Source of the DNA: a virus
IMG/VR virus record: IMGVR_UViG_3300050027_000156
Location: 1 to 20,740 of that record
DNA: 20,740 nt
Strand: one strand, 5' to 3'
In this document: in pieces, positions 83-5,750 of the stretch
Layout of the letters: the number at the start of each line of letters is the position of its first letter
How positions within the stretch are numbered: position 1 is the first letter of the stretch
Translations under genes and position numbers: made by a program
Notes under the pieces: generated by a model
Told to the model about the DNA's origin: nothing
The model's database searches: none
Seen by the model: only the letters and a program-made list of their open reading frames with translations

Positions 83-1855
83 ATGGCAAACATAACTTTC
101 ATCGGGACAGCAAGAAAATCAGCTAAGCAAGAACATGTTGATCCAAGAGCGAGGCACATCCGTGAATGGCGGGAGGCTTCAGATAGTGCTCGCAACAAGT
201 CCCTCGGTGAAAACTTCGCTAAGGCAGCGGAGGATTTGTACAATCTGCAAGACGCGATGGTGCCGGGTCCGGTTTACCGGCCGTCACTGTCGATTCCAAT
301 GCTCCAGCGGATTATGCTGGAGGAAGCAAATCAGGTCTCTAATCTCTCTCCCCGGATGTACGTTTTCCCGTCCGCCGGCGCTTCCGACCCATCATATTCC
401 TCAGCGCAGCAAGCCGACTCTTCACTTCCGTCTACTTCCGCTCGTGATCTAGCGAGAGAGGTCGTCCTTCAAGCTCAATGGCAGATCAGCAAGATGAATC
501 TGCATTTGTTAATGGCGGGGTTGACCGCTCGCTACTGCGGAGCTGGGTGGATTGTCGCCGGCTTTGACCCGGATTTGAGCCGCGCCCGCGGAGGCATGTG
601 GGCCCGTTCGATCGATCCTCGGCTGGTCTTTTTTGATCCTAACACTGACTACACTTGGAATCCTTCTTACGCGGGCTGGTCTATGGGGATGAATTTGGAG
701 GATATCCGGCTCAAATGGCCAGAAACCTCGCGTGCGATTCAACCGCGTCATACCAGCGGAGGTTTTCAGCCGTTCTCCGGTGATTCCGGGTATGGGATCT
801 CGCAGCCTCCGGGGCCTATGTCTTCGATGCCTTCGTCCCCTGGGCAGAATGCGAAGACACAATCTTCTGATTCAACACTATTAGTGAGCCACTGCTTTTG
901 CCGAGATTACACCCGCGAAACTGTTGAAAAGCCAGATGTGCCCACGACATCTCTGATCGACCCGGAAGTTCGTTTGAAATATCCTCAAGGCCGTTGGTTG
1001 GTCGAATGTGAAGGGGTGATTCTTCAGGATGGCGATAATCCATATCCGGCTCGGCGCGATATTACCGCTCCCCGGTTCCCGTTGTTCCCCAACTACGTCC
1101 TGCCTCCTCTGTTTGGCCCGTGGGGAATTCCCGTCACCAGGATGACTGAAAATATCCAGCGCCTTGCCCAGCGATTTTACACGCAGATATTTGAGAATGG
1201 TCTTCGGTTGAACAATGGGGTTTGGTTCATTGATGAGAATACGGGGATCGATATTGACGGATTCGGTGGGTTGCCAGGTGAAGTTTGCACAATCAAGCCG
1301 GGGTCGCGCATCCCCACTGTTGTGACTCCCAACGCTTCCTCCGCCGCTGTTCTCTCTGCTCCTGAAAAACTTCTCTCCCTTCAGAACGACGTGCTTGGAT
1401 TTTCAGCATCGAGGCAAGGTGAGCCCGGCGCCGGCAATATCTCGACCGACCTGTTTGACTCGGCCGTTCTGCAGTCTTCGGGGCTGCTGCAACTGGCTGG
1501 AAGATTTTTGAGCGAGACGGCAGAGATGATCGGTTCGTTTATGTTTGACACGATGTGCAAATATCAGGCTAAAACCACTCTTCCTTATCGTGGGCCGGAA
1601 GGAATCACTCTTGCCGCGTGGAATGGCCAGGTTGACCCAAGCACGTTTGATGTTGCGCTCGACGAGGCCAGTGTGCGGCCGCTCAGCGAGGCTGTTGTCA
1701 GAAAGATCACTCCTGATCTCATGAAATCCGGCGTGGTCGGGCCGGAGCGCGGGCTGAGGACTCTTGGCTATCCTGATCCCGAAGGAATCGCACAGGAGCA
1801 GCAGACTTCACAGGCGTTGGCCGCACTGGCTAAAGTTCGGAGTGGAAGGAAATGA
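83..1855 (+). CDS. Phage portal protein (podovirus type)
   Basis: This 590-residue protein most likely forms the dodecameric portal at the capsid vertex, the channel for DNA packaging and exit and the nucleus for head assembly. Supporting features are its length, its place ahead of scaffold and capsid genes, and its composition: an N-terminal helical part with REWREASDSARN (about 27-38), a mixed core with SIDPRLVFFDPNTDYTW (about 176-192), and a C-terminal helical part. The segment ARSIDPRLVFFDP resembles the wing/stem junction seen in P22-like portals. Residues about 222-265 are a low-complexity Ser/Gly/Pro/Gln stretch, probably a surface loop. GGAG at 69-72 serves the ATG at 83. Its TGA overlaps the next gene's ATG (ATGA, 1852-1855). 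The family call is by pattern and context, without an alignment. Confidence 0.78.
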   Translation: MANITFIGTARKSAKQEHVDPRARHIREWREASDSARNKSLGENFAKAAEDLYNLQDAMVPGPVYRPSLSIPMLQRIMLEEANQVSNLSPRMYVFPSAGASDPSYSSAQQADSSLPSTSARDLAREVVLQAQWQISKMNLHLLMAGLTARYCGAGWIVAGFDPDLSRARGGMWARSIDPRLVFFDPNTDYTWNPSYAGWSMGMNLEDIRLKWPETSRAIQPRHTSGGFQPFSGDSGYGISQPPGPMSSMPSSPGQNAKTQSSDSTLLVSHCFCRDYTRETVEKPDVPTTSLIDPEVRLKYPQGRWLVECEGVILQDGDNPYPARRDITAPRFPLFPNYVLPPLFGPWGIPVTRMTENIQRLAQRFYTQIFENGLRLNNGVWFIDENTGIDIDGFGGLPGEVCTIKPGSRIPTVVTPNASSAAVLSAPEKLLSLQNDVLGFSASRQGEPGAGNISTDLFDSAVLQSSGLLQLAGRFLSETAEMIGSFMFDTMCKYQAKTTLPYRGPEGITLAAWNGQVDPSTFDVALDEASVRPLSEAVVRKITPDLMKSGVVGPERGLRTLGYPDPEGIAQEQQTSQALAALAKVRSGRK

Positions 1856-2124
1856 CGGTGAAAGTGAAGAAATCTGCGAATGAATTGGCCAGCGATATAA
1901 GTAAAAACGTGATGGCGGGAAGGCCATCTTCTGTGCCTCCGCATCAGTGGGTCGGCCACTGGTTGACTATTTCAGAATTTTCAAGGCTGATGGGACGCGC
2001 GCCGCGAACCGGATACAACTGGATTAGAACTGGCATTTTGCCCGAGTTTGGAATATCTACTTACGAATTCAGGATGGGAAAGAAGCACTCGGCCAGAATT
2101 TTCGTAAGAAATCCTTACGCCTAA
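1852..2124 (+). CDS. Small helix-turn-helix DNA-binding protein (excisionase/MerR-like)
   Basis: This 90-residue basic protein starts inside the portal stop codon (ATGA overlap), so it is probably translationally coupled. Residues about 37-62 read as an Xis/MerR-type winged helix: WLTISEFSRLMG as the first helix and turn, RTGYNWIRTGILPEF as the recognition helix with the typical W-I-R-x-G-x-L-P run. A basic wing follows (GKKHSARIFVRNPYA). The N-terminal 35 residues are Lys-rich and probably flexible. Members of this fold act as excisionases, small terminase subunits or regulators. The site between portal and capsid genes favours a packaging or virion-assembly role, or local autoregulation, but that is inference. 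A nested inverted repeat overlaps its 3' end. Confidence 0.7.
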   Translation: MTVKVKKSANELASDISKNVMAGRPSSVPPHQWVGHWLTISEFSRLMGRAPRTGYNWIRTGILPEFGISTYEFRMGKKHSARIFVRNPYA

Positions 2125-2267: not shown

Positions 2268-2312
2268 ATGGCCCGTCGGCGTCACGGAAAGAAAGAAGGC
2301 AAGCGCAAGTAG
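2268..2312 (+). CDS. Tiny Lys/Arg-rich peptide, 14 residues
   Basis: The peptide is MARRRHGKKEGKRK, with 4 Arg, 4 Lys and one Glu (net charge about +7). AAAAGGAG (2253-2260) sits 7 bases before the ATG, a strong ribosome-binding site and the main reason to treat so short a frame as real. It is the first of four basic mini-ORFs before the capsid genes. The composition recalls protamine-like DNA-condensing peptides such as the J protein of microviruses, but there is no homology evidence. It could bind packaged DNA, bind RNA, or be translated only to modulate downstream genes. The length is too small for any family assignment. Confidence 0.5.
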   Translation: MARRRHGKKEGKRK

Positions 2313-2373
2313 TTCCTGCGCTGCCTCTGTGTCCTAGTTACGCATTCTCAACTCCCGAAAGGAGCCACCCTCG

Positions 2374-2505
2374 ATGGCCGGAACTCCCTCGAAATCTTCA
2401 CCCCGTCTCATCAAGGACTTTGGCCAACCCCGGAAGTTCCTGCGCGACATGCGTGCCCGGATCGCCCGCAACCCGAAACACCGGGTCGGCGGCAAACGAT
2501 CCTGA
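2374..2505 (+). CDS. Small basic protein, 43 residues
   Basis: The frame is preceded by AAAGGAG (2358-2364), 9 bases before the ATG. The product has 8 Arg, 5 Lys and 2 Asp (net about +11). Residues about 11-33 (from RLIKDFGQPRKF through RDMRARIARNP) could form a basic amphipathic helix. The C-terminus is HRVGGKRS, similar to the GGKRK end of the fourth mini-ORF. A nucleic-acid-binding or virion DNA-condensing role is plausible by charge and location only. No family is recognised. Confidence 0.58.
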   Translation: MAGTPSKSSPRLIKDFGQPRKFLRDMRARIARNPKHRVGGKRS

Positions 2506-2513
2506 CTCATCCC

Positions 2514-2547
2514 GGAGACGATGCTGCTGGCCTTCGCGCCCGTCTCC
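2514..2547 (+). promoter_or_regulatory. Hairpin after the second mini-ORF
   Basis: GGAGACG (2514-2520) pairs perfectly with CGTCTCC (2541-2547) around a 20-base loop. It begins 8 bases after the stop of the 43-residue gene, and TTA follows rather than a U-tract, so it is not a convincing terminator. A 7-bp match can arise by chance. It is listed because two comparable hairpins flank the next mini-ORFs. Confidence 0.35.
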
Positions 2548-2612
2548 TTAACTGGTCAAGCTGAGGCCGTCACCGGCTCGGCTCTGGCTGTGGAAGCGAA
2601 GGAGGTACGCAG

Positions 2613-2672
2613 ATGGCTTCTCGTGGAGGAAGACGATCCACCCGGCGTCGGCGCACCGCCGCTCGCAAGTAG
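2613..2672 (+). CDS. Tiny Arg-rich peptide, 19 residues
   Basis: The peptide is MASRGGRRSTRRRRTAARK: 8 Arg, 1 Lys and no acidic residue (net about +9). The consensus site AAGGAGG (2599-2605) lies 7 bases before the ATG. Such composition is typical of protamine-like or RNA-binding peptides, and a role in neutralising packaged DNA is a reasonable but untested inference. The stop codon is directly followed by the left arm of a hairpin (2673). A longer out-of-frame ORF over this stretch has no such ribosome-binding site. Confidence 0.55.
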   Translation: MASRGGRRSTRRRRTAARK

Positions 2673-2731
2673 TTCGGCGGTCAGGTGGGTGGTAACTGGT
2701 GGGGGACTAGACATCACCCCTCCCCGCCGAA
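2673..2731 (+). promoter_or_regulatory. Hairpin immediately after the 19-residue ORF
   Basis: TTCGGCGG (2673-2680) is perfectly complementary to CCGCCGAA (2724-2731). The 43-base interval is G-rich on the left and C-rich on the right (GGTGGG...CACCCC), so further pairing inside is likely. The left arm starts on the base after the TAG stop. No U-tract follows. It may protect or process the mRNA between mini-cistrons. Confidence 0.42.
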
Positions 2732-2758
2732 AGCGTTCGATGCGCAAGACAGGAGCGT

Positions 2759-2789
2759 GGGCCAGAACGGAGTTAATCCAGCCTGGCCC
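2759..2789 (+). promoter_or_regulatory. Hairpin before the 25-residue ORF
   Basis: GGGCCAG (2759-2765) pairs perfectly with CTGGCCC (2783-2789) around a 17-base loop. It ends 17 bases before the GAGGGAG ribosome-binding site (2807-2813) of the next mini-ORF. There is no U-tract, so a processing or stability role fits better than termination. Confidence 0.4.
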
Positions 2790-2821
2790 GACTCCCAGTC
2801 TAATTTGAGGGAGATTCGATC

Positions 2822-2899
2822 ATGAAGAAGATGTGCAGCAAAATTGACCGGATGACCTACAGGGTGGACCGGCGCGTAAAGGGTGGCAAGCGGAAGTAA
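2822..2899 (+). CDS. Tiny basic peptide, 25 residues
   Basis: The frame reads MKKMCSKIDRM... and ends VKGGKRK, with 6 Lys, 5 Arg and 2 Asp (net about +9). GAGGGAG (2807-2813) is placed 8 bases before the ATG. The GGKRK C-terminus matches the end style of the other mini-ORFs (GKRK, GGKRS, ARK), which hints at a shared function or origin. It contains a single Cys. No family is recognised. Confidence 0.55.
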   Translation: MKKMCSKIDRMTYRVDRRVKGGKRK

Positions 2900-2955: not shown

Positions 2956-3141
2956 ATGGCTAAAATCAAAGAGGGTTTTGGTACAAATTTCAACGAGGAA
3001 ATCCTCAAGAGCCCGTTGACTGTAGGCAGGACTGGCAACGAGCCCGGCCCTGATGTGAATAACAGCCCGGTTGCGATGCCCAAGGATCCTCTTGGACTCA
3101 TCCCCGAAGGCGGCGACAAGCCCCACTGGTCCGGAAAGTAA
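2956..3141 (+). CDS. Hypothetical 61-residue phage protein
   Basis: AAAGGAGG (2942-2949) lies 6 bases before the ATG, one of the strongest ribosome-binding sites in the window. The protein begins MAKIKEGFGTNF, is rich in Pro, Gly and Asn in its second half (residues about 24-58), and ends HWSGK. It has no membrane segment or catalytic motif and looks largely disordered. It lies 6 bases before the next start, so the two are probably co-translated. It may be a minor virion or assembly protein, from position only. Confidence 0.68.
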   Translation: MAKIKEGFGTNFNEEILKSPLTVGRTGNEPGPDVNNSPVAMPKDPLGLIPEGGDKPHWSGK

Positions 3142-4763: not shown

Positions 4764-5750
4764 ATGGCTCAGAGCGTGGTTGGACTGGGACTAGCATCGC
4801 CGCCGGTACAGTTGTCGAACACCGTCAATGCGATTTCCCAGAAATTTATCGTCCCTGTCCTCGGCGACAACGTTTTCAAGCCCAGTCCGGTATTCTGGGC
4901 GCTGACACGCGAGGGCAAGCGGTTTGGAGCAGGCGAGTTGATCTTCCCGGAAATCTATCAGGAAGAACTTCCCGGTGGCGCCTATTACGGTGACCAGCTC
5001 CTTGACACTTCGGTTGTGGATTCGGTGCAGCCAGCGAATCAGCAGTGGAAGCCCTACCGCCAGCCGGTAGTCATTCCCATCACCGACATTATCTTCAATC
5101 GTGGCGGCTCGAACAATCTCGACATTATTCGCGCCAAGTACCAGACGGCCTCTGGTTCTTTTCTGCAGAAGCTCTCGCGCGCTCTCTGGCACACCTCACC
5201 GCAGAACACTACGCTGGACGTGGATGATTTGAACTCATGGGTGGTGTCGACAACCAACACCATCGCCGGGATCAGCCGCGCCTCCTCGGCGAACGCCTGG
5301 TGGCTGCCGGCGACTGCGGTGGCCGGTGGTTCCGTTGCCCTGACTTCGGCCATAGCCGAGCCCGCCTACCAGTCTGTCACCTGGGGCTATGACGAGCCGG
5401 ATCTGTTCGTGATGAACCGGACTTCCTACGCTGCGTTCAAGAACAACTTTGTCGCTATCATCCGCTTCGGCCAGGGGATGCAGGATGACGAGGCGCTGCA
5501 GGTTGGCTTCCGCAATCACTTCCTGTTCAATAACGCGGTCACGGTGGCGGATTATTTCTCAACCGCCAACCAGGCTCTGCTGCTGAACTCGAAGTACATC
5601 TTCCCGGTCTTCCACGAGGCGGACTATTTCAACGTCGATCCGTTCCTCAAGCCGTCCAACCAGCGTGTCCTGGTCTCGTGCATGTATCTGACCTGGAACT
5701 TGTCGTGCATCTCGCCGCGCATGAACGTGGCAATCACATCGATCACGTAG
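4764..5750 (+). CDS. Major capsid protein (probable HK97 fold)
   Basis: This 328-residue protein follows the scaffold and is the best candidate for the shell protein. The sequence is typical: a short N-terminal arm (SNTVNAISQKFIVPVLGDNV, 18-37), hydrophobic and aromatic elements such as PSPVFWALT (about 41-49), the E-loop-like region YQEELPGGAYYGDQLLDTSVV (about 66-86), and a later P-domain/A-domain pattern including DEPDLFVMNRTSYAAF and a C-terminal WNLSC. CAGGAG (4751-4756) is 7 bases before the ATG. The HK97-fold call is inference from pattern and synteny. Hairpins in both flanking gaps suggest that expression is tuned after transcription. Confidence 0.82.
   Translation: MAQSVVGLGLASPPVQLSNTVNAISQKFIVPVLGDNVFKPSPVFWALTREGKRFGAGELIFPEIYQEELPGGAYYGDQLLDTSVVDSVQPANQQWKPYRQPVVIPITDIIFNRGGSNNLDIIRAKYQTASGSFLQKLSRALWHTSPQNTTLDVDDLNSWVVSTTNTIAGISRASSANAWWLPATAVAGGSVALTSAIAEPAYQSVTWGYDEPDLFVMNRTSYAAFKNNFVAIIRFGQGMQDDEALQVGFRNHFLFNNAVTVADYFSTANQALLLNSKYIFPVFHEADYFNVDPFLKPSNQRVLVSCMYLTWNLSCISPRMNVAITSIT

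What the first reader, a model, noticed from the sequence alone, without database searches (positions are those of the whole stretch)
2268..2899. Cluster of four tiny, highly basic ORFs between portal and capsid genes
In a stretch that would pass as non-coding there are frames of 14, 43, 19 and 25 codons. Each has a near-consensus Shine-Dalgarno sequence at 7-9 bases, net charges of about +7 to +11, and similar ends (GKRK, GGKRS, ARK, GGKRK). Repeated good ribosome-binding sites on basic frames are unlikely by chance. They could be protamine-like peptides that neutralise packaged DNA (the microvirus J protein is a functional precedent) or RNA-binding regulators of the capsid operon.
Basis: partly seen in the sequence, partly recalled or inferred. 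Interest (0 to 1): 0.8.

Follow-up and report, generated by a model that had tools for sequence, protein, structure and literature searches.

The report
Tiny basic phage genes, pseudoknot-gated
A group of uncultured soil phages carries a row of genuine genes for tiny, strongly positively charged peptides (about 11-50 amino acids) next to its virus-shell genes, and one of them has its ribosome-binding site paired into a conserved RNA pseudoknot; standard annotation libraries contain neither the peptides nor the RNA.

Summary
The four frames at 2268-2899 have the stated lengths, Shine-Dalgarno (SD) sites, charges (+7, +11, +9, +9) and ends. All four recur in the same order, each with its own SD, in about 37 related soil-phage contigs, and at least three of them in each of 17 further close contigs. 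Relatives with only 32-60% portal identity mostly keep one to four tiny K/R/H-rich ORFs in the same gap. Purifying selection acts in the proposed frames. Net charge is held within narrow limits (A: +6 to +9 in 25 alleles). Chance is excluded.

Unexpected: the 19-aa ORF C has a conserved RNA element. A covarying hairpin (18 distinct arm pairs, 94% paired against 50% when dealt anew) carries a loop, CCUUCGC, complementary to the SD region GCGAAGG, including a compensated variant. This H-type pseudoknot would sequester C's SD. It occurs once per genome, only with C, and has no Rfam match.

Most likely these are nucleic-acid-binding polycations made with head proteins, C dose-controlled by the pseudoknot. 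Whether they coat packaged DNA (microvirus-J-like) or regulate RNA is undecided: no isolate, host or virion data exist.

The parts
2268..2312 (+). tiny ORF A, 14 aa, +7; SD AAGGAG 2255-2260
   Evidence: pN/pS 0.52; charge +6 to +9 in 25 alleles
2374..2505 (+). tiny ORF B, 43 aa, +11; SD AAAGGAG 2358-2364; conserved core KDF.QPRKFLRDMRAK, weakly predicted helix 19-32
   Evidence: (pN/pS 0.57; shifted frames 1.03, 1.39)
2514..2547 (+). RNA hairpin upstream of C: stem 2514-2520 / 2541-2547, loop segment CCTTCGC 2531-2537
   Evidence: covariation; single copy per genome; co-occurrence with C
2596..2602 (+). GCGAAGG in the SD region of C (SD AAGGAGG 2599-2605), predicted partner of the hairpin loop: pseudoknot stem S2
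2613..2672 (+). tiny ORF C, 19 aa, +9, RGG/Arg-rich; low synonymous divergence
   Evidence: pN/pS 0.38; four-fold sites 0.16 against 0.55 in gene E
2673..2797 (+). second structured RNA element between C and D (TTCGGCGG...CCGCCGAA helix, GCG-TTCGATG-CGC hairpin, invariant TCCCA), close relatives only
2822..2899 (+). tiny ORF D, 25 aa, +9; SD AGGGAG 2808-2813
   Evidence: (pN/pS 0.54)
83..1855 (+). portal protein (upstream neighbour block)
   Evidence: fold matches podovirus portals, best E 3e-14
1852..2124 (+). HTH gene directly upstream of the cluster
   Evidence: HTH_17 E 1e-4, below Pfam cut-off
2956..3141 (+). conserved 61-aa gene E directly downstream, not basic; control gene here
   Evidence: pN/pS 0.25
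4764..5750 (+). major capsid protein
   Evidence: PHROG 9953 E 3e-22

Best explanation
The cluster is four real genes for polycationic, nucleic-acid-binding mini-proteins lying among the head genes of a lineage of probably lytic, uncultured, podovirus-like soil phages. Shown by sequence: conservation, selection on the peptides and on their charge, and a conserved RNA pseudoknot that pairs a hairpin loop with the SD of C. Inferred: the pseudoknot hides C's ribosome-binding site until it is opened, by a ribosome finishing the ORF just upstream (its stop lies 0-16 nt before the hairpin in most loci) or when free peptide is scarce (autoregulation), so that a sticky polycation is made in the right dose. 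Inferred with less certainty: the peptides work like microvirus J or protamine, neutralising phage DNA or inner-capsid charge during packaging.
For: Order, frame and SDs of A-D conserved in about 37 contigs plus 17 more. Selection in frame. Charge constant while A's sequence and length drift, as expected of an electrostatic role. Tiny basic ORFs persist beside head genes in relatives with 32-40% portal identity. Hairpin covariation 94% against 50%. Loop-SD complementarity in all cassette loci, with a compensated variant and one wobble. Enriched at C starts and not at control starts. Present in contigs retrieved without using it.
Against: No translation, virion or binding data. Tailed phages are generally held to package DNA without such proteins (own knowledge). 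C's strong conservation and RNA linkage fit an RNA target equally well. B and D keep specific non-basic residues, so they may do something else. Pooled pN/pS and the charge shuffle ignore relatedness.
Confidence: 0.42

Rival explanations
1. RNA-binding regulators: the Arg-rich peptides, C above all, bind RNA structures of this operon (the C pseudoknot, the C-D element) and control translation or transcription of the head genes, as lambda N binds boxB.
For: C is RGG/Arg-rich and always accompanies the hairpin; two structured RNA elements flank it; four-fold sites in B and C are constrained.
Against: The invariant hairpin loop is explained by pairing with the SD. Distant relatives keep tiny basic ORFs without this RNA. 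The hairpin is single-copy and no conserved boxA-like tract was found.
Confidence: 0.27
2. Host-directed cationic peptides that act on the membrane, ribosome or RNA polymerase during late infection.
For: Small size, strong charge, fast evolution of A; phage small proteins often target hosts (review PMC11323111).
Against: Fixed position among head genes across divergent relatives; no family match; the hydrophobic face typical of membrane-active peptides is lacking in A and C.
Confidence: 0.12
3. Minor capsid, scaffold or assembly peptides that bind head proteins rather than nucleic acid.
For: Synteny with portal, scaffold-like and capsid genes; B has a conserved core with a weakly predicted helix.
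Against: A and C are almost purely K/R with no hydrophobic surface; no structure-based support was obtainable (pLDDT 68 for B).
Confidence: 0.12
4. Leader ORFs: only the act of translation matters (spacing, coupling, mRNA protection), the peptides are by-products.
For: Stop codons lie close before the C hairpin; strong SDs; structured spacers.
Against: pN/pS below 0.6 in all four, C peptide nearly invariant, charge held constant.
Confidence: 0.06
5. Chance basic frames in G+C-rich spacer DNA.
For: Short basic frames are easy to find in such DNA.
Against: Conservation of order, SD, frame and charge across dozens of contigs.
Confidence: 0.01

Closest known systems
Microviridae J protein (phiX174, G4, alpha3)
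   Same: Very small, highly basic product of a gene in the capsid region; the functional model proposed here
   Different: J belongs to ssDNA phages with T=1 jelly-roll capsids and ends in an aromatic, capsid-binding tail (own knowledge); here a tailed dsDNA phage, several peptides, K/R-ended
T4 gene 32 autogenous operator (PMC535899)
   Same: Phage mRNA with a 5' pseudoknot and a nucleic-acid-binding product
   Different: In T4 the pseudoknot lies upstream of the SD and nucleates gp32 binding; here the SD itself is part of the pseudoknot, and autoregulation is untested
timP pseudoknot (PMC11228461)
   Same: RNA pseudoknot governing translation of a small protein
   Different: There the pseudoknot is needed for translation; here it covers the SD and is predicted to repress; no antisense RNA seen
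lambda N / boxB
   Same: Arg-rich peptide near an RNA hairpin
   Different: N is about 107 aa and boxB has a GNRA-like pentaloop in nut sites (own knowledge); here 19 aa, one hairpin whose loop matches the SD

Membership tests
Microviridae J protein | short, strongly basic protein | tested here: met
   12-46 aa, +6 to +13
Microviridae J protein | encoded by an ssDNA microvirus with jelly-roll capsid | tested here: not met
   major head protein of tailed phages, terminase, podovirus-type portal fold in the group
Microviridae J protein | aromatic/hydrophobic C-terminal tail that docks to the capsid | tested here: not met
   A, C, D end in K/R-rich tails
Microviridae J protein | packaged with the genome | not testable with these tools
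   needs virion proteomics
lambda N / boxB antitermination | nut-type sites with boxA and boxB | tested here: not met
   one hairpin per genome, downstream tract not conserved in distant relatives
lambda N / boxB antitermination | peptide binds its hairpin | not testable with these tools
   needs binding assay
SD-sequestering pseudoknot | covarying hairpin stem S1 | tested here: met
   18 distinct arm pairs, 94.4% paired against 49.9%
SD-sequestering pseudoknot | loop complementary to the SD region, with compensation | tested here: met
   7/7 in all cassette loci but one wobble (L054); L039/L040 changed on both sides
SD-sequestering pseudoknot | represses translation in cells | not testable with these tools
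   needs reporter and probing experiments
T4 gp32-type autogenous control | product binds its own 5' pseudoknot | not testable with these tools
   needs peptide-RNA binding
any described protein or RNA family | profile match in Pfam, PHROGs or Rfam | tested here: not met
   (one PHROG match at E 1.7, not meaningful); Rfam. ORFs under 20 aa could be scanned only through longer alleles or padded

The most novel reading that the evidence does not exclude
A tailed dsDNA phage lineage that packages its genome with its own set of protamine-like mini-proteins and sets their dose by autogenous control through an SD-sequestering pseudoknot, a DNA-condensing strategy not described for tailed phages as far as I know.
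Probability: 0.2. Interest if true: 0.87.

Novelty: new variant of a known kind. Interest (0 to 1): 0.62.

Why it matters
Short-ORF cut-offs and tryptic proteomics would both miss 11-25-aa K/R-rich proteins, so a conserved set of genes in a structural locus can stay invisible. If they bind packaged DNA, the usual view that tailed phages package essentially bare DNA has an exception that can be tested. The pseudoknot is a compact, covariation-supported candidate translational switch absent from Rfam, and a handle for finding more such genes.

Tried and rejected
Chance ORFs: rejected. Rfam, including permissive search: only chance matches. Hairpin as terminator: not followed by a U-tract, and one search lists no terminator there. 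tRNA/tmRNA: none. boxA/boxB reading: downstream tract not conserved. Host through proviruses: no capsid relative in 84,980 genomes, once with the single protein and once with the alignment. Model R1 in distant relatives: no significant match. SD-sequestering pseudoknots at B, D, E, F, scaffold and capsid starts: no consistent signal. At A-type ORFs one is seen in some loci without C (L045, L052, L053, L101, L104, L106) but not as a group. A fuzzy regex scan timed out; an over-strict regex printed nothing and was redone. The phage small-gene survey of Fremin et al. was not held, so overlap with its predictions was not checked.

Full report
OBSERVATION. The window is a 20,740-base IMG/VR virus record. 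The four frames exist exactly as described: A 2268-2312, B 2374-2505, C 2613-2672, D 2822-2899, each with a purine-rich SD 7-9 nt upstream and net charge +7, +11, +9, +9. Upstream are a 590-aa protein and a small HTH gene (HTH_17, E 1e-4, below Pfam's cut-off). The 590-aa protein has no profile match, but its predicted fold (mean pLDDT 72) matches podovirus portals of Pan3, SU10, N4 and P22 (best E 3e-14; viral library). Downstream come a conserved 61-aa gene E, a 170-aa gene F, a scaffold-like gene (by position only) and the capsid gene (PHROG 9953, E 3e-22).

CONSERVATION. Capsid similarity retrieved 71 viral loci, capsid identity 99-58%. Among those with portal identity of about 80% or more, about 37 have the same A-B-C-D order, each ORF with its own SD. 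The spacers vary freely in length, often not by multiples of three, whereas the ORFs change length in whole codons. Contigs found by RNA-motif patterns instead of protein (19 new ones) are a partly independent check: all belong to the same group. Fourteen of the 17 close ones carry A-D; L122 and L156 show no D near the contig end, and in L152 A was not picked up by the scan. The two distant ones carry other subsets. Two contigs (L067, L126) have a fifth tiny basic ORF. Relatives with portal identity of about 32-63% keep subsets: A, B, C and a 30-47-aa peptide between E and F, or, further out, one to four peptides such as MARRKRHSKRK, MARRKHRRGGKRK and MAHRGGRRRRRRMSRRY; in a few (L090, L105) the scan found none. 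The nearest isolates by capsid (Mx9 26%, ctMlz233 24%) show no comparable tiny K/R-rich ORFs there.

SELECTION. In frame, pN/pS is 0.52 (A), 0.57 (B), 0.38 (C), 0.54 (D), against 0.25 for E; in the two shifted frames B gives 1.03 and 1.39, C 1.37 and 2.20. The pooled pairs are not phylogenetically independent, and the D alignment includes some over-long starts. Net charge is nearly constant: 25 alleles of A, 12-23 aa long, are all +6 to +9 (sd 0.69 against 2.97 when residues are dealt anew, which ignores relatedness). In a 77.9-kb relative, SD-preceded ORFs of this composition cluster at this locus; one 31-aa ORF lies just before the portal gene, and weak candidates lie elsewhere.

A SECOND LAYER: RNA. 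The sequence around C is more conserved than ordinary coding DNA. Four-fold degenerate sites differ in 0.16 of comparisons in C and 0.24 in B, against 0.51-0.55 in A, D and E. Between B and C lies a hairpin whose upper part UGGCCUUCGCGCC is invariant in most loci. Its lower stem of 7-10 bp has changed at every position with compensation: GGAGACG/CGUCUCC here, GGGAGUG/CACUCCC, AGACAAUG/CAUUGUCU, CAUCUCAG/CUGAGAUG, GUGAGCGA/UCGCUCAC and others. Over 18 distinct arm pairs 94.4% of positions pair, against 49.9% (maximum 68.1%) when 3' arms are dealt anew; in a divergent set of 14, 93.8% against 46.2%.

PSEUDOKNOT. The loop segment CCUUCGC is the exact reverse complement of GCGAAGG in C's SD region AGCGAAGGAGG. 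This holds in all cassette loci but L054, which has one U-G wobble; two relatives (L039, L040) carry CUUUCGC with GCGAAAG. In a search for a hairpin whose loop pairs with the SD, C starts score -28 (close) and -27 (distant) against -13 and -6 in dinucleotide shuffles, and 26 of 30 pass p<=0.05, whereas E, F, scaffold and capsid starts show no enrichment. With looser geometry 20 of 30 C starts pass and one of 122 control starts does. The exact core occurs once in each of 18 of 20 relatives searched whole; the other two carry variants. It is present with C-type ORFs and absent without them. Seven contigs retrieved only through the element downstream of C also have the hairpin and its partner. 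Some lineages without C have a pseudoknot of other sequence at their A-type ORF (L045, L052, L053; L101, L104, L106), suggestive but not established for the group. The stop codon of the upstream ORF lies 0-16 nt before the stem in most loci, 8 nt in nearly all close ones, so a terminating ribosome could disturb it; this is inference. A further element, 30 consensus pairs of which 11 show two-sided changes, lies between C and D in close relatives. Neither element matches Rfam.

MECHANISM. Shown computationally: conserved genes, constant charge, SD-pairing pseudoknot. Inferred: the pseudoknot limits C translation, released by upstream translation or when peptide is scarce. T4 gene 32 is a precedent for a phage nucleic-acid-binding protein controlled through a 5' pseudoknot, although there the SD lies outside it (PMC535899); in timP a pseudoknot activates translation (PMC11228461), so the sign must be measured. 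The peptides' targets are not shown. Constant charge with drifting sequence and head-gene synteny favour unspecific binding to phage DNA during packaging; C's RGG/Arg-rich make-up and its link with the RNA keep RNA regulation open. My weights: genes real 0.98; pseudoknot real 0.9; DNA or packaging role about 0.4; RNA regulation about 0.27; the rest is shared by other roles.

CONTEXT AND LIMITS. The group is uncultured: portal and gene E have no match among 50,697 phage records, and no capsid relative was found in 84,980 bacterial and archaeal genomes, which fits a lytic life or unsampled hosts. One relative carries terminase, DNA polymerase, primase and helicase genes. Peptides under 20 aa cannot be scanned directly by the profile tools. 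The pseudoknot statistics use my own simple energy model. Literature searches covered open-access papers only.

Noticed in passing
window 2673-2797; 48 IMG/VR stretches: Second structured RNA element between C and D with invariant GGUGGGGGAC and GCGCAAGACAGGA segments and a T-loop-like hairpin; its GGGGGAC loop might pair with the invariant UCCCA just before D's SD.
   Followed up: partly
window about 2212-2227, upstream of A: Conserved block (U)CUCCUUAAUCGCA before ORF A in most close relatives; UCUCCUU could pair with A's SD AAGGAGA, or the block could be a promoter element.
   Followed up: partly
L045:4588-4731, L044:4487-4606, L029:4539-4631: Distant relatives have another basic 30-47-aa ORF between gene E and gene F (for example ending PRRTKRW or GRGGGLRG), absent from the window.
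   Followed up: partly
L067:2800-2859; L126:5630-5689: A fifth tiny basic ORF, MAKSTKVSRRVARKSAHRY, between A and B in two contigs.
   Followed up: no
L108:19318-19413: A 31-aa basic ORF (MEGRSHPASFLRKATRVAEKKSGKRAAKKRG) with SD just upstream of the portal gene of a 77.9-kb relative.
   Followed up: no
window 2956-3141: 61-aa gene E, strongly conserved (LKSPLTVGRxxNEPGPDV), no family match and no match in phage records; a family hallmark of unknown function.
   Followed up: partly
window 83-1855 and 4764-5750: The capsid protein is far more conserved than the portal across the group (for example L051: capsid 76%, portal 37%).
   Followed up: no
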